This document shows, piece after piece, positions 22,672-31,739 of a stretch of 33,194 bases of DNA. Position 1 is the stretch's first letter. Every line of letters starts with the position of its first letter. The DNA comes from a virus: positions 1 through 33,194 of the IMG/VR virus record IMGVR_UViG_3300025896_000103; one strand, 5' to 3'. Made by a program: the position numbers and the translations under genes. The notes beneath the pieces are model-generated. The model was not told the DNA's origin. It saw only the letters and a list, made by a program, of their open reading frames with translations, and made no database searches.

Positions 22672-22898
22672 ACTTTGTAAAACCAGACACCAAAAAAGAC
22701 CCGATTGACGAGGTTCAGCGCCTGATGTGCTCTGTGCCAGGATGCCCCAAACGTTGGTCGGTTCACATGGAAGGCCAGCGCCCAATGTGTTCTGAACATC
22801 AATGGTCAGGCAGCAAACCAGTCAAAAAGGATATTTCTGCCTTGTTGCCCAACAGCAAACCCGTGAAACATTGGATGGATGATGGGGAGGTATTTTGA
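22668..22898 (+). CDS. Small zinc-finger-like protein
   Basis: A 76-aa protein whose ATG overlaps the initiator stop (ATGA). Residues 21-44 carry CSVPGCPKRWSVHMEGQ then MCSEH, a C-x4-C and C-x2-H arrangement suitable for one zinc. The rest is polar, with a Lys/Pro stretch and an acidic DDGEVF end. A GGGGAGG in its last codons serves the next gene(s). Probably a nucleic-acid or protein-binding accessory in replication; function unknown. Confidence 0.68.
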   Translation: MNFVKPDTKKDPIDEVQRLMCSVPGCPKRWSVHMEGQRPMCSEHQWSGSKPVKKDISALLPNSKPVKHWMDDGEVF

Positions 22899-23911
22899 AT
22901 GAGTTGGCTTTATTCGCGGGTGCTGGTGGAGGAATACTTGGGGGACACCTCCTTGGATGGCGAACAGTCTGCGCCGTTGAATGGGAATCCTACCCAGCTA
23001 GCGTATTGTGCGCCCGACAAAATGATGGACTTCTCCCGCCTTTCCCGATTTGGGATGACATACAAACCTTTGACGGCAAGCCGTGGAGAGGAATTGTTGA
23101 TGTCGTATCGGGCGGCTTTCCATGTACCGACATCAGCGCAGCTGGAAAAGGAGCCGGAATTGATGGAGAAGCCTCTGGAATGTGGCGAGAAATGGCGAGG
23201 GTCATTTGTGAAGTACGACCCAGATTCGTCTTTGTGGAGAACTCACCAATGCTCACTTCTAGGGGGCTTGGACGAGTTCTTGGAGACTTGGCCTCAATGG
23301 GGTTTGATGCGAGATGGGGAGTGCTGGGAGCAGCAGATGTTGGCGCAAACCATCAGAGGGACAGAATCTGGATTGTCGCCAAATGGCGTGGACAGCTTTC
23401 ACACGCCCAACACGACAGGATTAGACGGTGGGAGCAACAGCAGGAAGGCATTGAAAAAGAAAATGGAGAATTGGCCAACTCCTCGATCATGTTCAGCAAT
23501 GGCGGCAACGATAACGCCAGAATCAGCATGGAACGAAAAACGCAATCCGAATTTGGAAACAATAGTAGGTCAACGGTTATGGCCTACACCAACATCACAC
23601 ATGGCAAAGGAAACCAATGCGCCCAGCGAACACAACAGGAACACGCCAACCCTAACGGCACAAGTGAACTGGCCAACACCCAGAACCAAGGGAATGTGTG
23701 GAGGAAGTGGCAGTTGGGATTTGCTAAACAAAAACACTACCAAGGAAGAAGCGCGACAAATGGGCGCAGGGAATGGTGGGAAGTTGAACCCAATGTGGGT
23801 CGAGTGGCTGATGGGGTGGCCGCTAGGGTGGACAGACTTAAAGCCATTGGAAATGGACAAGTCCCATTGTGCGCCGCAACCGCTTGGAGAATCCTAAGTG
23901 AACTACTTTGA
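22895..23911 (+). CDS. C5-cytosine DNA methyltransferase (Dcm-type)
   Basis: A 338-aa C5-methyltransferase with the full motif order: motif I ALFAGAGGGILGG (5-17), motif IV GGFPCTDIS (73-81) with catalytic Cys77, motif VI ENSPM (115-119), motif VIII HQRDRIWIV (153-161), and motif IX/X RVADGVAARVDRLKAIGNGQVP (303-324). The variable region about 165-295 is the presumed target-recognition domain and contains repeated LAN/MAYTN segments. The start is TTG 22895 (overlapping the upstream TGA), only 4 nt after GGAGG. It probably protects phage DNA from restriction. Its whole length is also open in the +1 frame (separate entry). Confidence 0.88.
   Translation: MNELALFAGAGGGILGGHLLGWRTVCAVEWESYPASVLCARQNDGLLPPFPIWDDIQTFDGKPWRGIVDVVSGGFPCTDISAAGKGAGIDGEASGMWREMARVICEVRPRFVFVENSPMLTSRGLGRVLGDLASMGFDARWGVLGAADVGANHQRDRIWIVAKWRGQLSHAQHDRIRRWEQQQEGIEKENGELANSSIMFSNGGNDNARISMERKTQSEFGNNSRSTVMAYTNITHGKGNQCAQRTQQEHANPNGTSELANTQNQGNVWRKWQLGFAKQKHYQGRSATNGRREWWEVEPNVGRVADGVAARVDRLKAIGNGQVPLCAATAWRILSELL
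22899..23897 (+). CDS. Second-frame ORF fully overlapping the C5-methyltransferase
   Basis: A 332-codon ORF lying wholly inside the methyltransferase gene in the next frame. It starts at ATG 22899 with GGAGG at the optimal 8 nt, better than the methyltransferase's own TTG. The product begins MSWLYSRVLVEEYLGD, contains three WPTP repeats (192-195, 228-231, 258-261) and ends with GKLNPMWVEWLMGWPLGWTD. I recall near-identical N- and C-terminal strings annotated as phage hypothetical proteins, always the +1 reading of such methyltransferases. That shows the frame is kept open in relatives but not that it is translated. No domain is known. It may be a true overprinted gene or a by-product of composition. 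Confidence 0.5.
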   Translation: MSWLYSRVLVEEYLGDTSLDGEQSAPLNGNPTQLAYCAPDKMMDFSRLSRFGMTYKPLTASRGEELLMSYRAAFHVPTSAQLEKEPELMEKPLECGEKWRGSFVKYDPDSSLWRTHQCSLLGGLDEFLETWPQWGLMRDGECWEQQMLAQTIRGTESGLSPNGVDSFHTPNTTGLDGGSNSRKALKKKMENWPTPRSCSAMAATITPESAWNEKRNPNLETIVGQRLWPTPTSHMAKETNAPSEHNRNTPTLTAQVNWPTPRTKGMCGGSGSWDLLNKNTTKEEARQMGAGNGGKLNPMWVEWLMGWPLGWTDLKPLEMDKSHCAPQPLGES

Positions 23912-24929: not shown

Positions 24930-25197
24930 CTGTCAAGCCTGCGGGTCTGGCAATATGGTGCAAGCGGCACACACAAACTGGGGCGGCGGCAAAGCCAAAA
25001 GCATCAAAGCTGATGACAATTTGGTGGCTGCGCTGTGCCTTGGATGCCACTACGAGATTGACCAAGGCAAAAATTTAAGCCGCCAAGAACGCCAAGAAAT
25101 GTGGCTAAAGGCCCATCACAGGACAATTGACAATTTAAAAGACGTATGGCCCAAAGATGTGCCATTTCCGATAGAATCAGATGGCAGTAGCCATTAG
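24868..25197 (+). CDS. HNH-type recombination nuclease (DUF968/Ref-like)
   Basis: A 109-aa protein from TTG 24868 (GGAGAG about 5 nt upstream). The motif set CQACGSGNMVQAAHTNWGGG and ALCLGCHYEIDQG gives the zinc Cys pairs and the His of AAH, as in DUF968/Ref-type HNH proteins of phages. The N-terminus YVRSKKLLKLVASLDCQACG is standard for this family. Ref of P1 is a RecA-dependent nuclease; this one may act in the same recombination setting. It is the last gene before the strong terminator. Confidence 0.75.
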   Translation: MIPKREYVRSKKLLKLVASLDCQACGSGNMVQAAHTNWGGGKAKSIKADDNLVAALCLGCHYEIDQGKNLSRQERQEMWLKAHHRTIDNLKDVWPKDVPFPIESDGSSH

Positions 25198-25222
25198 GGG
25201 GGCTGTGTCCCCCCTCTTTTTT
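25196..25222 (+). terminator. Strong intrinsic terminator ending the rightward early unit
   Basis: A GGGGGG / CCCCCC stem (25197-25202, 25209-25214; an A-T pair outside) with a 6-nt loop is followed by T-rich TCTTTTTT. It sits right at the stop codon of the HNH gene and before AGGGG, the ribosome site of the next gene. Confidence 0.88.
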
Positions 25223-25232
25223 AGGGGATGCT

Positions 25233-25601
25233 ATGGCAGTTGAAGACAAAGATGTAGCGGATTTTGTTAGTACGCTACTGCATTCCGGCACAGTTGCCCA
25301 CTTTATGCACCTTGGCACAGACAGCCTTGGGGTGCATTTGGCTACGGGTGACTACTACACCACAATTATTGACTTGGTAGACCAGTTTGCCGAGGCATAC
25401 ATGGGGTGTTACGGGAAAAAGATAAAGAACTTTCCCGAGAACTTCCACAATGCCAAAGACCCCATTAAATACTTGGAAAGCCTGTCAAAGTACGTGGAGA
25501 CCAACCGCAAAGCAATGCCTGATGACACTCAATTGCAAAACATCATTGATGAAATTGCCCAATTGATTGACTCAACCCTATTCCGCTTGACGCTGAAATG
25601 A
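25233..25601 (+). CDS. Dps/ferritin-like-fold phage protein (DUF5856-like)
   Basis: A 122-aa protein after the terminator. The pattern HFMHLGTDSLGVHLATGDYY then TIIDLVDQFAEAYMGCYGKK resembles phage proteins annotated as Dps-like or DUF5856, with a helical bundle layout. It has the conserved His and acidic residues one expects, but I cannot confirm a ferroxidase site. The C-terminal half is helical (LESLSKYVETNRKAMPDDTQ). Function in the phage is unknown; its place before a glycosyltransferase in a separately terminated block suggests an accessory gene. Confidence 0.58.
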   Translation: MAVEDKDVADFVSTLLHSGTVAHFMHLGTDSLGVHLATGDYYTTIIDLVDQFAEAYMGCYGKKIKNFPENFHNAKDPIKYLESLSKYVETNRKAMPDDTQLQNIIDEIAQLIDSTLFRLTLK

Positions 25602-26278
25602 TCAGGATATTTGCAGGATACGATCCGCGAGAGGCCATTGGCTATCACGTTTTTTGCCAAAGCCTAATTGAGAGATCAACCGATGGGGTGGCTATAACCC
25701 CCCTATTTGGCAAGCAAAGGGACGGGACAAACGCCTTTACCTATCAAAGATTCCTGATTCCTTATTTCATGGGGTTTCAAGGACGGGCCATATTTTTGGA
25801 TGGCGCTGATATGCTGATGCTGGGGGACATTGCCGAATTGGACAAGCTATTTGACCCCACCAAGGCGGTGCAAGTGGTCAAACACGACTATCAGACCAAG
25901 CACCCAAGAAAATATATCGGCACACCAATGGAATCGGCAAATCGGGACTATCCGCGCAAAAACTGGTCAAGTTTAATACTTTGGAACTGCGCTCACCCCC
26001 GAAACAAAGTGCTGACCCCAGAATTTATCGAGGAAAACAGCGGAGCAGACCTACACCGATTCGGATGGTTGCCAGATTCACTTATCGGTGAAATACCGAG
26101 AGAATGGAATGTGCTGGTGGGTGAGCAAGACCACTTGAGAATCAAGATTGCCCACTACACGTTAGGAATACCAGAATTTGAATATTATGAAGATTGTGAT
26201 TATTCTGAGGAATGGAAACGCACCAAAGGCAGAATGATTAACGGCCTTATCAAAATGAAGGATACCCAAGATGCCTAG
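25598..26278 (+). CDS. Glycosyltransferase (GT8-like, GT-A type)
   Basis: A 226-aa protein starting ATGA over the previous stop. It opens RIFAGYDPREAIGYHVFCQS, then FTYQRFLIPYFMGFQGRAIF and LDGADMLMLGD, where DGAD stands at the place of the metal-binding DxD. It continues HPRKYIGTPMES, YPRKNWSSLILWNCAHPRNK, LHRFGWLPDSLIGEIP and HYTLGIPEF. These match the phage glycosyltransferase family I know with FVGYDPREA and RKNWSS motifs. The acceptor is unknown: DNA, virion protein or cell surface sugar. It is the third glycan locus besides the DUF115 cassette and RmlC. Confidence 0.8.
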   Translation: MIRIFAGYDPREAIGYHVFCQSLIERSTDGVAITPLFGKQRDGTNAFTYQRFLIPYFMGFQGRAIFLDGADMLMLGDIAELDKLFDPTKAVQVVKHDYQTKHPRKYIGTPMESANRDYPRKNWSSLILWNCAHPRNKVLTPEFIEENSGADLHRFGWLPDSLIGEIPREWNVLVGEQDHLRIKIAHYTLGIPEFEYYEDCDYSEEWKRTKGRMINGLIKMKDTQDA

Positions 26279-26417
26279 CACCTCAAAGAAACAAGAGAAA
26301 TTCATGGCGGCAGCGGCGCATAACCCTAAATTTGCAAAGATGGCGGGTATTCCTGTGAAAGTTGCCAAGGAATACAACAAAGCCGATCAAGCTAAAAAAC
26401 CCGTAAAAAATGGCTGA
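26271..26417 (+). CDS. 48-aa DUF3008-like small protein
   Basis: ATG at 26271 overlaps the glycosyltransferase end by 8 nt. The product starts MPSTSKKQEKFMAAAAHNPK and continues KMAGIPVKVAKEYNKADQAK, the recognisable pattern of a common phage/bacterial small protein (MPSTSKKQxxFM type). Basic and helical; function unknown. It overlaps the next gene by 8 nt. Confidence 0.75.
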   Translation: MPSTSKKQEKFMAAAAHNPKFAKMAGIPVKVAKEYNKADQAKKPVKNG

Positions 26418-27558
26418 TTACAGAGATTTGGCAGCGGCGTTGGGTGCTGGGTATGGACAAGATACCGGGCCGATAACCGCTGACACATTGCAAACCTTAA
26501 AAAGTGGGTACAGATCGCCCAACTTTTTGGGAATGCTTGCCGACATAGGGCGGGGGTCTTTGAGTAATCTGGAATCGTTGGTTAGGGGTGGAGTGGCGCA
26601 AGTGCCGGGAACTGCTGGAGACATAGAGGCATTGGCCCGAATGGGGCTAAACAAGTCTTTTGGGGCTGGCGGGGTAAACGTCAACCAAGAGACAGCATTG
26701 CCAACCACAGCAGACATAATGAAGATGTTGCCCCAAAGAATGACTCAAACAAGGCCCGAAACGGCTGGCATGGAGGAATTGGGCACAGTCATAGGGCCGG
26801 GGCTAGGAAAAGCCGTTAAACCCTTGGCAAAGGCTTATGGTAATTTGGCCTTGGAAGAGATTGCAATGGCAAGCACAGGCCAGCCCACCAGATCGTTGCT
26901 GGGGGACATTACACCCAAGCCCTTGATGGTCGTTGAAACTAATGCTAAAAACATAAACAAATTGCCATCTGATTATTATGAGCTAAACGGCATGGCTACA
27001 CAAGCCTACTCAGACTTACGCGCCAAACCAAGCCAAGAAACTGCTGATTACTACAAAGCAATTATGAAAGCCCGTGATGAGGCTTCTAATAATCCCTCAA
27101 ACAACTATACGTCACCTGTGCCTGATGTAGAACCACAAAGCTACAAAGGTCAACACGCTGCACCAACAAAAGATGGCGGCGCTGCCTTATGGGACATGAA
27201 AGGAATTTATCCTGATGACTTTTACAGTTCAAAAGGCGCTCAGTATTACGGTGATGGAGCAGAACCATTAAGAGATGCCATGATTGTTCGACAAATGCAA
27301 TCAATGAAAAATCGTCCAAATGCTCCAGTAACAATTTATCGCGCAGTTCCTAAAAGTGTTTCAACGAAAGAAGCATTGAATACTGGGGATTGGATAACGC
27401 TTGATCGTCAATATGCAAAAGAGCATGGTGAGGGTGCATTAAATGGCGATTACAAGATTGTTAGCAAAACAGTTAAAGCACGTGATTTATTTACAAATGG
27501 TGATTCAATTTATGAAATGGGATATGATCCACAACCACGCATTTTGAAAACAAAATAG
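26410..27558 (+). CDS. Virion-type protein with C-terminal ADP-ribosyltransferase-like domain (ART-PolyVal type)
   Basis: A 382-aa protein. Residues 1-165 look like the N-terminus of phage internal proteins (LLGDITPKPLM, TRPETAGMEELGTVIGPGLG, small-residue rich). Residues about 250-378 match the ART domain of phage polyvalent proteins: DDFYSSKGAQYYGDG, APVTIYRAVPKSVS with Arg311, LNTGDWITLDRQYAKEHGEG with Thr330, GDYKIVSKTVKARDLFTNGD, and IYEMGYDP with Glu369, an R-S/T-E-type triad. ARTs transfer ADP-ribose from NAD to targets; T4 injects its own with the DNA. The 3' half is more AT-rich than the 5' half (about 35% G+C over 27481-27540 against 48% over 26521-26580 by hand count), suggesting a domain acquired later. 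It sits directly before the terminase. Confidence 0.78.
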   Translation: MADYRDLAAALGAGYGQDTGPITADTLQTLKSGYRSPNFLGMLADIGRGSLSNLESLVRGGVAQVPGTAGDIEALARMGLNKSFGAGGVNVNQETALPTTADIMKMLPQRMTQTRPETAGMEELGTVIGPGLGKAVKPLAKAYGNLALEEIAMASTGQPTRSLLGDITPKPLMVVETNAKNINKLPSDYYELNGMATQAYSDLRAKPSQETADYYKAIMKARDEASNNPSNNYTSPVPDVEPQSYKGQHAAPTKDGGAALWDMKGIYPDDFYSSKGAQYYGDGAEPLRDAMIVRQMQSMKNRPNAPVTIYRAVPKSVSTKEALNTGDWITLDRQYAKEHGEGALNGDYKIVSKTVKARDLFTNGDSIYEMGYDPQPRILKTK

Positions 27559-27560
27559 TT

Positions 27561-27875
27561 ATGTCAGAAACTAAAGTAGTTAAAGATAGAAAAAAGGCAG
27601 GAGGGCGCACCATAGGAACGCCCAACAAGGCCACAGCACAGGCTAGAGAGGCCATAGCCGCCTTTGTTGATGGCAACGCATACCGCCTTACCGAGTGGCT
27701 AGATGAAGTCGCTAACGGCGATCCTAGTCGAGACATAAAGCCCAACCCAGCAAAGGCGTTTGAACTCTTCCAAAGCGTAGTGGAGTACCACGTACCCAAG
27801 CTGGCAAGGACTGAGGTGACTGGGGCAGATGAAGGCCCGATAGAAATGGTGGTTAAGTGGGCAGCAGAGAAATAA
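27561..27875 (+). CDS. terS: Terminase small subunit
   Basis: A 104-aa protein placed just before the large terminase and overlapping it by 19 nt. The N-terminus is basic (KVVKDRKKAGGRTIGTPNKA) and the centre AREAIAAFVDGNAYRLTEWL then NPAKAFELFQSVVEYHVPKL matches small terminase-type proteins of this phage group. The small subunit recognises the packaging site and feeds DNA to the large subunit. Shorter than many TerS (about 150 aa), lacking part of an oligomerisation region, so the call rests on context as well. Confidence 0.75.
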   Translation: MSETKVVKDRKKAGGRTIGTPNKATAQAREAIAAFVDGNAYRLTEWLDEVANGDPSRDIKPNPAKAFELFQSVVEYHVPKLARTEVTGADEGPIEMVVKWAAEK

Positions 27876-29176
27876 TCCTTCCCTACGCGCCCCGTAAGGC
27901 GTTCATGCCCTTTCACCAAAGGACAGAGCGTTGGTCATGCTTGGTGGCACACCGCAGGGCTGGCAAGACAGTAGCCGCCATTAACGACTTGATTAAACGG
28001 GCCATAACTGAGGGCAACAGGCAAGCCCAATATGCTTACATTGCCCCATTCAGAAGTCAGGCCAAGCGGGTAGCATGGGATTACATCAAGTATTACGCCG
28101 CACCGATAACCAAATCCACCAATGAAAGCGATCTGATGGTGGAACTGGTCAATGGGGCAAAAATCATGCTGTTTGGTGGTGATAACGCTGACGCAATGCG
28201 TGGAATGGGGTTCAACGGGGTGTATTTAGACGAATACGGCGATTTTCGGCCTAGCGTCTGGGGTAATGTCATAAGACCCACTTTGTCTAGCACTATGGGC
28301 TGGGCCGTGTTTGGGGGCACTCCCAAGGGTAAAAACCAGTTTCATGACATATATAGGGTCAGTCAGGCTACACCAGATTGGTTTTTATTAAGACTCCCCG
28401 CCTCGGCATCTAAGCTATTGCCGGACACAGAACTAAGAGCCGCCCGGGAGCAATTGAGCCAAGATCAGTACGATCAAGAATATGAATGCTCATTTGATGC
28501 CGCCATTTTGGGGGCGTTTTACGGGTTGGAGATGCGCCGGGTGGATGAAGAGGGGCGTATCAAAGAGTTGCCATTTGAGCCAGAAAGCCCGGTTTACACA
28601 GCTTGGGACTTGGGTTACCGGGATGACACCGCGATTTGGTTCTATCAAGTGGTCAGGGGCGAAATTAGGGTTATGGACTACTTTGCGGTCAGCGGGGCAA
28701 GCATCGAGGAAATATGCCAAGCCGTAATTGACAAGGGGTATCTCTACACCCGGCATTGGTTGCCCCATGACGCACGGGCCAAAACATTGGCAAGCGGTGG
28801 AAAGTCAATCATCGAGCAGTTAGCCGAGCATTTGGGCATGAGCAAGTTGGCAATAGTGCCCGAAATTGGGGTGCAAGACGGCATCCAAGCGGTGCGGATG
28901 GTGCTACCTCGGTGCTGGTTTGATCCAAGCTGTGACGAGGGGCTTGAGGCACTCAGACAGTACCAAAGAGAATATGATGAGGACAAAAAGGCTTTTCGAC
29001 AAAATCCCCGCCATGACTGGTGTTCGCACCCCGCAGATGCCTTTAGAATGTTAGCAGTAGCCTATAAAGTTGAGGCTAAAGACGAAAAACCGCCCAAGGG
29101 CAAGACCCTACAAACCATCACACTTGATGAACTGTGGGACTTTGAGACTGAATACAAGCAGGAGCAGAGAATATGA
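27857..29176 (+). CDS. terL: Terminase large subunit
   Basis: A 439-aa packaging ATPase/nuclease. ATPase motifs: AHRRAGKT (31-38) as Walker A, GVYLDEYGDF (121-130) with Asp125-Glu126 as Walker B, and GGTPKG (153-158) as motif III. The RNase H-like nuclease follows: AWDLGYRDDTAIWF from 249 with Asp251, and the C-terminal HDWCSHPADAFRML. The GTG at 27857 is used as start, overlapping terS. The headful or cos mode cannot be told from sequence, but the circular permutation implied by the contig overlap fits headful packaging. Confidence 0.93.
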   Translation: MGSREIILPYAPRKAFMPFHQRTERWSCLVAHRRAGKTVAAINDLIKRAITEGNRQAQYAYIAPFRSQAKRVAWDYIKYYAAPITKSTNESDLMVELVNGAKIMLFGGDNADAMRGMGFNGVYLDEYGDFRPSVWGNVIRPTLSSTMGWAVFGGTPKGKNQFHDIYRVSQATPDWFLLRLPASASKLLPDTELRAAREQLSQDQYDQEYECSFDAAILGAFYGLEMRRVDEEGRIKELPFEPESPVYTAWDLGYRDDTAIWFYQVVRGEIRVMDYFAVSGASIEEICQAVIDKGYLYTRHWLPHDARAKTLASGGKSIIEQLAEHLGMSKLAIVPEIGVQDGIQAVRMVLPRCWFDPSCDEGLEALRQYQREYDEDKKAFRQNPRHDWCSHPADAFRMLAVAYKVEAKDEKPPKGKTLQTITLDELWDFETEYKQEQRI

Positions 29177-29451
29177 GTCAACCAGTAGCCGAAGTCGGTG
29201 GATACAAAAACATCACAGCAACGGGCGCGGTCACTCCCGGCCCATGTCAATTGATCGGGTTTTACGTCAACAGCACCACGATTGGCACATTGGTGCTACG
29301 CAATGGCGGCGCAAGCGGTGAGGTAATGTCCGGCACAATTACCCCGGCGATTGGGTTTCACCGATTCCCCGCCAACGTGGGTGTCAGCCTGTATGCCACG
29401 ATTGCTGGAACTGGCTTAGATGTGACATTTTTCTTTGCTGCGGGTAGCTGA
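29173..29451 (+). CDS. Small beta-rich head-associated protein
   Basis: A 92-aa protein starting ATGA over the terminase stop. Gly/Thr/Val-rich, with alternating hydrophobic strands (KNITATGAVTPGPCQLIGFY, TLVLRNGGASGEVMSGTI, GVSLYATIAGTGLDVTFFF), which suggests a small jelly-roll or similar fold. Between terminase and portal, such genes often encode head decoration or head-fibre subunits. No firm family. Confidence 0.65.
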   Translation: MSQPVAEVGGYKNITATGAVTPGPCQLIGFYVNSTTIGTLVLRNGGASGEVMSGTITPAIGFHRFPANVGVSLYATIAGTGLDVTFFFAAGS

Positions 29452-31739
29452 TGGCATCCTACGAAGACGCATATGAGGGGGAAGACCCCGGCCCGTTTTG
29501 GCATGACCAGATCGAAAAAGCTACCAAGATTTTCGACAAGTGGGAAAAGCGCGGACACAAGGTAGTTAAACGCTATAGGGATGAGCGAGATGCGGTAGAG
29601 ATGCCGCGCATGAAGTTCAACATCCTTTGGTCAAACATACAGGTGCTTTTTCCCGCGCTTTATGGCAGACAAGCCAAGCCCGAGGTTTCCCGGCGCTACA
29701 TGGATCAAGACCCCGTAGGCCGTTTGGCCTCAACAATGCTTGAGCGCGTCATGGAGTACGAGGTTACCCAATTTGGGGACTTTGACGCTGCCATGCAAGG
29801 CGCGGTGCAAGACCGATTGCTACCGGGACGGGGCACGGCGTGGATTCGCTACGAGCCGATCATTACCGGGCCAGAGCCAACCGAGTACATGGGTGAGGTT
29901 GAGGCCGATGAAGGCGCAACCATTAGCAATGCCGAGGAAATAGAACAGATTGATGCGGCGCACAGCCCAATAGATTACGTCTATTGGTGCGACTTCATCC
30001 ACAGCCCCGCCCGTACATGGGATGAAGTTTGGTGGGTTGCCCGTGCTGTCTATATGACCAAAGAAGAGGGCACAGAGCGCTTTGGGGATGTGTTTAAAAA
30101 CGTGGGCATGACCTCCGAAAACACAGACATGGACGGCAAGAACCCCCAGACTGCCAAACAGGGTTACGACAAAAAAGCCAAGGTATACGAAATTTGGAAC
30201 AAGCGCACCATGAAAGTGTGCTGGGTTGCCAAGGGTTACCCACAGGCTTTAGATGAGCGTGATGACCCGCTGGAATTGGAAGAATTCTTCCCATGTCCCC
30301 GGCCTTTGCTGGCAACCACCACCACCGGGACAATGATTCCCGTGCCGGACTACTGCCAGTATGAAGATCAAGCCCAAGAACTCGACAACCTAACCCAGCG
30401 TATTTACTTGCTGACCAAGGCTTGCAAGGCCGTGGGTGTGTTTAACGCCGAGTTTAAGGAACTGGGCCGACTGTTTACCGAGGGGGTGGACAACAAGTTA
30501 TTCCCGGTGACGGGCTGGGCCGCAATGAGCGAAAAGGGCGGTTTGAAGGGTGCTATCAATATGATGGACACCACCCAGATCGTTGCTACGCTGGCGCAGT
30601 TGTACGGGGCGCGGGAACAGGTCAAGCAGATCATCTATGAAATTTGTGGCATCAGCGACATTTTGCGGGGCGCAAGCAAAGCACAAGAAACTCTAGGCGC
30701 ACAACAGCTAAAAGCCAACTTTGGCAGCTTGCGGTTAAAGAGCGCCCAAGGCGATGTGGCCCGGTTTGCGTCTGACATATTTAAGTTAAAAGCGCAGATT
30801 ATCTGTAAGTTTTACCCGCCTGAGTTGATTGTGGAAATGTCTGGGGTGATGAATACCCCAGAGGGCCAAGACCCGCAATTGTTGCAAGCCGCCATTCAGA
30901 TGCTGTCCAGCGGCACGATTCGGGACTACCACATAACTGTGGAGAGCGATTCTCTTGCCCAGATTGATGACCAAGCTGAAAAGCAAAATGCACAAGAGGC
31001 GATTGCCGCTATCGGTGGATTTTTGCAAAATACTTTGCCGATGGTGCAGGGTGCGCCCGAATTGTTGCCGATGGCCTCTGAGATGCTTTTGTTTATGGTT
31101 CGCCGATACCGCGCAGGGCGTGGATTGGAAAGCGCCATTGAACAGGCCATGAAACAGCTACAGGTTAAGGCGCAACAGGCTATGGCACAGCCCCCGCAAA
31201 ATCCCGAAATGATGAAGATGCAGGCCGAGCAACAGGCCGAGCAAATGCGGATGCAAGCACAAGCGCAAGGCGAGCAGATGAAAATGCAAGCCGAGATGCA
31301 ATTGGCGCAGGCTAACGCCCAGCTTGAAATGCAAATGCAACAGGCCAAAACTCAAGCGGATATGCAGCTTGAGCAGATGAAAGAACAATTCCAACAGGCT
31401 ATGGCTAACCAAGAATTGCAAATCAAAGCCCGTGAGATGCAAGGCCGCGAGGAATATGACCGTTGGAAAGCTGAACTAGATGCGGCAACCCGAATCATGG
31501 TAGCCCAGATCGGCGCTAAAGCGGGGCTTGATCAAGCGGCATTGAGCGCACAATTGGCGGCATCTGAGGAAATTGATGCAACCCTTGGTGACGGCATGAG
31601 CGAGGCAATCAACCGCCTAGCCGATATGCACGGGCAGACGCTGGGACAGATCACCGGGGTAATGCAGGCTATATCTGCCCCCAAGCGGATTGTCCGAGGC
31701 CCAGATGGTAGAGCAGCGGGTGTAGAGTTGATCACATGA
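29451..31739 (+). CDS. Portal protein (P22-like, long Gln-rich C-terminus)
   Basis: A 762-aa portal, sharing one base with the previous stop. The N-terminal ~300 residues have portal-type signatures (HKVVKRYRDERDAVEMPRMK, FNILWSNIQVLFPALYGR, HSPIDYVYWCDFIHSPARTW). A clip/crown region is followed by ISDILRGASKAQETLGAQQL, typical of P22-type portals. Residues about 580-690 form a very long Gln/Met/Glu-rich coiled coil (QAEQQAEQMRMQAQAQ, LEMQMQQAKTQADMQ), like the barrel that extends the P22 portal inside the head. It would form the dodecameric DNA channel and bind adaptor and terminase. Confidence 0.9.
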   Translation: MASYEDAYEGEDPGPFWHDQIEKATKIFDKWEKRGHKVVKRYRDERDAVEMPRMKFNILWSNIQVLFPALYGRQAKPEVSRRYMDQDPVGRLASTMLERVMEYEVTQFGDFDAAMQGAVQDRLLPGRGTAWIRYEPIITGPEPTEYMGEVEADEGATISNAEEIEQIDAAHSPIDYVYWCDFIHSPARTWDEVWWVARAVYMTKEEGTERFGDVFKNVGMTSENTDMDGKNPQTAKQGYDKKAKVYEIWNKRTMKVCWVAKGYPQALDERDDPLELEEFFPCPRPLLATTTTGTMIPVPDYCQYEDQAQELDNLTQRIYLLTKACKAVGVFNAEFKELGRLFTEGVDNKLFPVTGWAAMSEKGGLKGAINMMDTTQIVATLAQLYGAREQVKQIIYEICGISDILRGASKAQETLGAQQLKANFGSLRLKSAQGDVARFASDIFKLKAQIICKFYPPELIVEMSGVMNTPEGQDPQLLQAAIQMLSSGTIRDYHITVESDSLAQIDDQAEKQNAQEAIAAIGGFLQNTLPMVQGAPELLPMASEMLLFMVRRYRAGRGLESAIEQAMKQLQVKAQQAMAQPPQNPEMMKMQAEQQAEQMRMQAQAQGEQMKMQAEMQLAQANAQLEMQMQQAKTQADMQLEQMKEQFQQAMANQELQIKAREMQGREEYDRWKAELDAATRIMVAQIGAKAGLDQAALSAQLAASEEIDATLGDGMSEAINRLADMHGQTLGQITGVMQAISAPKRIVRGPDGRAAGVELIT

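What the first reader, a model, noticed from the sequence alone, without database searches (positions are those of the whole stretch)
26410..27558. ADP-ribosyltransferase-like domain fused to a virion-type N-terminus next to the terminase
The C-terminal 130 residues show an ART-PolyVal-like layout with an Arg311/Thr330/Glu369 triad on an N-terminus resembling internal virion proteins. The AT-richer 3' half suggests a swapped-in effector domain. This could be a packaged enzyme injected with the DNA to ADP-ribosylate host targets or block defences.
Basis: partly seen in the sequence, partly recalled or inferred. Interest (0 to 1): 0.72.

Follow-up and report, generated by a model that had tools for sequence, protein, structure and literature searches.

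The report
Swappable ADP-ribosyltransferase warhead beside terminase
This phage gene joins a conserved front half to a back half that is predicted to be an enzyme of the ADP-ribosyltransferase superfamily, and close relatives keep the front half but carry entirely different back halves, as if the virus loads interchangeable protein tools to act on the bacterium it infects.

Summary
The ORF at 26410-27558 (382 aa) is real, and its two halves behave as separate parts. Residues 1-173 form a leader found in 47 distinct proteins of uncultured phages. Residues 179-382 are a module found on other N-termini and in giant polyvalent proteins. In near-identical phages (91-94% DNA identity on both sides) only 26929-27567 is replaced; at least ten sequence-unrelated modules occur on this leader, including ART-PolyVal, LPD23/HELQH and ParB-like ones. 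GC drops from 0.53 to 0.40 at the junction. AlphaFold models residues 233-382 confidently (pLDDT 90.9). Of 198 PDB chains compared, those reaching Z>=2 are ADP-ribosyltransferase-fold proteins as I read their titles, though no Z exceeds 5.3. Arg311 is conserved 46/46, Glu369 41/41, Thr330 (T/S) 45/46. The family is not ART-PolyVal, which uses H-Y-D and which no member matches. It lacks the (E/Q)xE loop of classic R-S-E toxins and has no Pfam or NCBIfam model. Best reading: a late-made effector, probably packaged and injected like T4 Alt, on a non-MuF polymorphic leader without an immunity gene. Catalysis, packaging and target are inferred, not shown. New variant of a known kind.

The parts
26410..27558 (+). 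Whole effector gene, 382 aa
26410..26928 (+). Conserved leader (aa 1-173), shared by 47 distinct proteins of related phages; GC 0.53; structure not confidently predicted (helices, low pLDDT)
26929..27567 (+). Replaced segment: DNA homology to L021/L022/L024 (91-94%) stops at 26928 and resumes at 27568; GC of 26929-27558 is 0.40
26944..27555 (+). Module (aa 179-382) that recurs on other N-termini (L001, L002, L003, L008 and others)
27142..27534 (+). ART-fold catalytic domain (aa 245-375), PHROG 2579 region; AlphaFold pLDDT 90.9, pTM 0.82
27340..27342 (+). Arg311 codon, predicted beta-1 NAD-binding Arg (46/46)
27397..27399 (+). Thr330 codon, predicted beta-2 S/T (45/46 T or S)
27514..27516 (+). 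Glu369 codon, predicted catalytic Glu (41/41)
27561..27875 (+). TerS-like small ORF, 2 bp downstream; leaves no room for an immunity gene
27857..29176 (+). Terminase large subunit
   Evidence: phrog_2, E 1e-41
29451..31739 (+). Portal protein
   Evidence: phrog_12082, E 5e-180
25598..26278 (+). Conserved upstream neighbour (phrog_28018, unknown function); left edge of the syntenic slot

Best explanation
The gene encodes a late-expressed phage effector made of two parts. The leader (aa 1-173) is an adaptor that most likely takes the protein into the virion. The C-terminal module is an NAD+-using ADP-ribosyltransferase of the R-[S/T]-E type that acts in the newly infected cell. Mechanism, with inferred steps marked: the protein is made with terminase and portal (position shown, co-expression inferred); the leader docks it in the procapsid (inferred); it enters the host with the DNA (inferred); Arg311 and Thr330 hold NAD+ and Glu369 drives cleavage (inferred from fold plus invariance); ADP-ribose goes to an unknown host target, as with T4 Alt (inferred). 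Related phages keep the leader and exchange the module by recombination at aa ~173 (shown by comparison), giving a polymorphic set of delivered enzymes.
For: Domain swap: in L021, L022 and L024 the DNA is 91-94% identical up to 26928 and mostly 90-92% identical from 27568, with an unrelated ~957 bp in place of 639 bp. Forty-seven distinct leader proteins carry at least ten module types with no mutual BLAST match, among them ART-PolyVal, LPD23 with a HELQH motif and ParB-like sequences. The module alone is shared at 83% DNA identity with L018, where only it and one other 171-bp stretch match the window. Fold: pLDDT 90.9, pTM 0.82; the seven best PDB Foldseek rows are the ART toxins Vis and ExoS; the VIA rows with Z>=2 are ART-fold proteins as I read their titles, while non-ART candidates did not reach 2. 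End-ranges put Arg311 on cholera A1 residue 7 and Glu369 on residue 112 (catalytic roles of R7 and E112 from my own knowledge). Triad conservation and purifying selection. Relatives occur in polyvalent proteins with ART-PolyVal, LPD38/39, SLT, GNAT and weak RelA/SpoT domains, and directly before TerS/TerL on different leaders.
Against: No structural Z exceeds 5.3 and no PDB Foldseek E-value is below 0.07, so the fold call rests on unanimity plus residue conservation. The ARTT motif (E/Q)-x-E is absent: position 367 is I/L/W/P. The leader resembles no known virion protein and has no confident model. The domain also occurs as a bare 129-aa protein in mycobacteriophage Pumpkin, so it need not be packaged to work.
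Confidence: 0.58

Rival explanations
1. Same enzyme, but not packaged: made late in the infected cell, it modifies host or phage proteins, or guards against superinfection, as T4 ModA/ModB act without being injected. The leader would be a targeting or stability segment.
For: The bare domain exists as a stand-alone intracellular-size protein in mycobacteriophage Pumpkin and as a 145-aa ORF in L076/L077. The leader has no virion homologue.
Against: The leader is under strong purifying selection while modules are replaced, and the slot sits in the terminase-portal gene block even with other leaders. The module repertoire matches that of polyvalent proteins, which are predicted to be virion-delivered (PMC5512222).
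Confidence: 0.2
2. The ART fold is used to cleave NAD+ (NADase or phosphorylase) or to modify a nucleic acid or small molecule rather than protein; the phage depletes NAD+ or tags RNA/DNA. (Overlaps with the packaged and unpackaged versions, so its confidence is not exclusive of them.)
For: The (E/Q)xE motif of protein- and DNA-targeting R-S-E ARTs is missing. The best structural rows are KptA/Tpt1, which act on tRNA.
Against: Most Z differences between the leading rows are within the tie range, so KptA ranking first says little; a shared fold does not give a substrate.
Confidence: 0.3
3. The domain is a non-catalytic DNA-binding or partition element, as the PHROG label 'ParB C-terminal domain' says.
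For: PHROG 2579 match, E 1e-37; several GenBank records carry that name.
Against: No ParB domain in P0001, in Pumpkin gp129 (bare domain) or in Pupper gp109 by Pfam; an invariant R/E pair in an ART fold; purifying selection.
Confidence: 0.04

Closest known systems
Phage T4 Alt (head-packaged, injected R-S-E ART)
   Same: Predicted R-[S/T]-E ART encoded among late genes; same proposed delivery logic
   Different: No (E/Q)xE, no recognisable sequence relation to a known ART family by Pfam or phmmer, a swappable leader; packaging not shown
ART-PolyVal (PF18760) in polyvalent proteins
   Same: Occupies the same slot on the same leader in sibling phages; both kinds occur together in L018, L060 and L069
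   Different: H-Y-D active site; no Pfam match for our domain; profile comparison insignificant
MuF polymorphic toxins of temperate phages (PMC5576092)
   Same: Conserved N-terminal part with exchangeable C-terminal enzymes, ARTs included, in the DNA-packaging module
   Different: No MuF domain; no small immunity ORF (TerS starts 2 bp downstream); slot is upstream of TerS rather than next to the portal
PHROG 2579 / mycobacteriophage Pumpkin gp129, Gordonia phage Pupper gp109
   Same: Homologous domain, same invariant residues
   Different: Bare or on unrelated N-termini; named 'ParB C-terminal domain' without support found here

Membership tests
R-S-E class ADP-ribosyltransferase | ART core fold (six strands and a helix) | tested here: met
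   Confident model. As I read the titles, all VIA rows with Z>=2 are ART-superfamily structures and non-ART candidates fell below 2; best Z 5.3, 80 residues, 3.2 A, so each match alone is weak
R-S-E class ADP-ribosyltransferase | Arg on strand 1 | tested here: met
   R311 46/46, strand model residues 74-82
R-S-E class ADP-ribosyltransferase | Ser/Thr on strand 2 | tested here: met
   T330: T39, S6, A1; strand 95-98
R-S-E class ADP-ribosyltransferase | Catalytic Glu on strand 5 | tested here: met
   E369 41/41 where covered, next to strand 138-140 of the model
R-S-E class ADP-ribosyltransferase | ARTT loop X-X-phi-X-X-E/Q-X-E | tested here: not met
   Position 367 is I30/L5/W4/P2; position 364 mostly G (motif from PMC7827354). 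So it is not filed as a canonical toxin-type R-S-E member; this does not argue against the ART fold itself
R-S-E class ADP-ribosyltransferase | NAD+-dependent transferase activity | not testable with these tools
   Needs biochemistry
ART-PolyVal (PF18760) | Match to the Pfam model | tested here: not met
   0 of 46 members match at E<=1
ART-PolyVal (PF18760) | H-Y-D active site | tested here: not met
   R-T-E instead (definition in PMC5512222)
MuF polymorphic toxin | N-terminal MuF domain | tested here: not met
   No Pfam match for the leader
MuF polymorphic toxin | Exchangeable C-terminal effector on a constant N-terminus | tested here: met
MuF polymorphic toxin | Small immunity ORF downstream | tested here: not met
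   The stop is 2 bp before a TerS-like ORF conserved across the family
Polyvalent-protein type virion-delivered effector | Domains of the polyvalent repertoire, late-gene context | tested here: met
   Domain fused to ART-PolyVal, LPD38, LPD39, SLT, GNAT in relatives; leader sibling with LPD23; terminase-portal context
Polyvalent-protein type virion-delivered effector | Present in the virion and injected | not testable with these tools
   Needs virion proteomics

The most novel reading that the evidence does not exclude
A phage delivery platform independent of MuF and without immunity genes: one conserved leader at a fixed pre-terminase slot carries at least ten exchangeable warheads, one of them an undescribed ART family (R-T-E, no ARTT loop) spread through phages and polyvalent proteins under a mistaken 'ParB' name.
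Probability: 0.5. Interest if true: 0.72.

Novelty: new variant of a known kind. Interest (0 to 1): 0.56.

Why it matters
If true, phages exchange injected effectors the way bacteria exchange polymorphic toxin tips: by swapping only the enzyme behind a constant carrier. The leader could then be used to find delivered effectors of unknown function (most of the modules here match no Pfam family), and the ART family gives a testable set of NAD+-dependent host-takeover or counter-defence enzymes, including bare versions in cultured mycobacteriophages. It would also correct a database label ('ParB C-terminal domain').

Tried and rejected
Sequence searches against Pfam, NCBIfam and PDB sequences gave no significant relative of the domain. 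The superantigen rows are short chance stretches, and the one NCBIfam row at E 5e-5 (Endoglyc_H) concerns a single member. ART-PolyVal membership was rejected. The 'ParB' label was rejected. The leader structure could not be predicted (pLDDT 44.6), so no fold search was made with it. Cluster 3 is chained: only the window, L127, L140 and L161 carry the R-T-E domain on this leader, while L131 and L155 were joined through a second domain. L020's protein runs into the TerL C-terminus and is treated as a chimera or deletion. Promoter and terminator scans gave no more sites than shuffles. The phage record is not near any deposited genome beyond short DNA matches, so no virion data could be borrowed.

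Full report
What is there. The ORF 26410-27558 (+) encodes 382 aa. It is followed after 2 bp by a TerS-like ORF, then TerL and portal. The contig is a 33,194-bp virus record with major head protein, tail, amidase and structural genes elsewhere.

Two parts, one junction. A protein search in IMG/VR returned mostly two disjoint sets of relatives: proteins alike only over residues 1-174 or so, and proteins alike only over ~179-382. At DNA level the window is 94% identical to L021 over 25192-26928, then 639 bp of the window are replaced by 957 unrelated bp, and homology returns at 27568. L022 and L024 show the same breakpoints at 91-92%. The sequence is nearly identical through '...ATTACxCCxAAGCCCTTGATG' and then changes. 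Independently, the largest within-gene GC step among 23 window genes lies at 26923, six bases from this breakpoint, with GC 0.53 against 0.40 and GC3 0.55 against 0.28. Conversely L018 shares with the window only the module (83% over 593 bp) and one other 171-bp stretch, so the module has moved between otherwise unlike phages. Both parts evolve under purifying selection.

A polymorphic leader. A profile of the leader found 58 loci and 47 distinct proteins. Behind the leader lie at least ten module types without mutual BLAST similarity. Groups recognised: ART-PolyVal (PF18760: L125 E 5e-10; L021 E 7e-7, just under Pfam's own cut-off); an LPD23 protein with a HELQH motif (L120, E 4e-6, also just under the cut-off); and two ParB-like sequences (L042, L153; by eye, with weak PHROG support for one). 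Several large groups match nothing in Pfam. In four leader proteins (the window and L127, L140, L161) the module is the domain studied here; the L127 version is only 45% identical to the window's while its TerL is 85% identical, which suggests separate acquisition. Proteins with other leaders hold the same place just before TerS/TerL (L002, L003, L006, L074, and the complete Manatee Spring genome MW202462).

The catalytic domain. An alignment of 46 non-redundant domains gave a confident AlphaFold2 model of residues 233-382 (pLDDT 90.9, pTM 0.82). Foldseek against the PDB ranks the ARTs Vis and ExoS in its first seven rows, but with E 0.07 at best. VIA-align compared 198 of Foldseek's candidates; the rows that reached Z 2 are KptA/Tpt1, CNFy, Vis, TreX, LT-IIb, cholera A1, IcmQ, a Listeria ART, ExoS, VIP2 and SidE, which to my knowledge all contain ART-fold domains, although I did not verify this for CNFy and IcmQ in a paper. 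The best Z is 5.3. Each match alone is weak; the agreement, plus invariance of the residues that ART chemistry needs, is what carries the claim. The aligned end-ranges for cholera A1 (model 73-142 on residues 1-117) place Arg311 on residue 7 and Glu369 on residue 112 if the terminal segments are ungapped; the same arithmetic on LT-IIb gives residues 5 and 110. Arg311 46/46, Glu369 41/41, Trp328 46/46, His249 43/43, Thr330 T/S 45/46.

What family. R-S-E ARTs have Arg, Ser and Glu on strands 1, 2 and 5 and an ARTT loop ending (E/Q)xE (PMC7827354). The triad is met with Thr for Ser; the ARTT motif is not, because position 367 is hydrophobic. ART-PolyVal is defined by H-Y-D (PMC5512222) and is excluded by residue type, by Pfam and by an insignificant profile match, though that weak alignment does place our Arg on its His. 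[quoted passage not shown] the present domain occurs in proteins with ART-PolyVal, LPD38, LPD39, SLT and GNAT domains, so if its R-T-E chemistry is confirmed it adds to that picture. It is the C-terminal part of PHROG 2579, labelled 'ParB C-terminal domain'; a bare 129-aa member (Pumpkin gp129) and Pupper gp109 show no ParB domain.

How it probably works. Inference: a place in the packaging-gene block, a constant leader selected to stay the same, and modules typical of virion-delivered proteins point to packaging through the leader and release with the DNA, after which the enzyme transfers ADP-ribose from NAD+ to a host target. The precedents are T4 Alt and the MuF-linked ARTs (PMC5512222, PMC5576092, PMC9503650). 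Unlike MuF toxins there is no MuF domain and no room for an immunity gene, which fits a host-takeover or counter-defence role rather than a toxin aimed at competitors. Nothing here shows packaging, activity or target; the missing (E/Q)xE and the bare intracellular version leave NADase, RNA/DNA or late intracellular roles open.

Verdict.

Noticed in passing
L020:215-1267: Leader plus start of an ART-PolyVal-like module runs in frame into the C-terminus of TerL (joins window-equivalent 28768): assembly chimera or real deletion of the intervening genes.
   Followed up: partly
PHROG 2579; NC_042027 gp129, NC_054723 gp109: 'ParB C-terminal domain' name in RefSeq phage records seems unfounded for this domain.
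   Followed up: partly
L071, L074, L075, L090, L107, L108, L111 (domain ORFs): Many relatives carry a 40-60 aa insertion between the YRAVP and GDWVT motifs, between predicted strands 1 and 2; possibly a substrate-recognition insert.
   Followed up: no
L018:2003-3505 and L127:5001-6713: Tandem proteins: L018 has ART-PolyVal followed by the R-T-E domain; L127 has the R-T-E domain followed by an unassigned domain with an HGS...FASSDP pattern that looks ART-like.
   Followed up: partly
L038/L039/L040 (309-aa module) and L027/L028/L049 (630-aa module): Two of the commonest modules on the leader match no Pfam family; candidates for new delivered effectors.
   Followed up: no
window 22895-23911 and 22899-23897: The 338-aa ORF at 22895, which looks like a cytosine methyltransferase, is almost fully overlapped by a 332-aa ORF in another frame (sequences).
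   Followed up: no
window 25598-26278: The conserved gene left of the effector slot (phrog_28018, unknown) has a glycosyltransferase-like look (FLDGADMLMLGDI); not tested.
   Followed up: no
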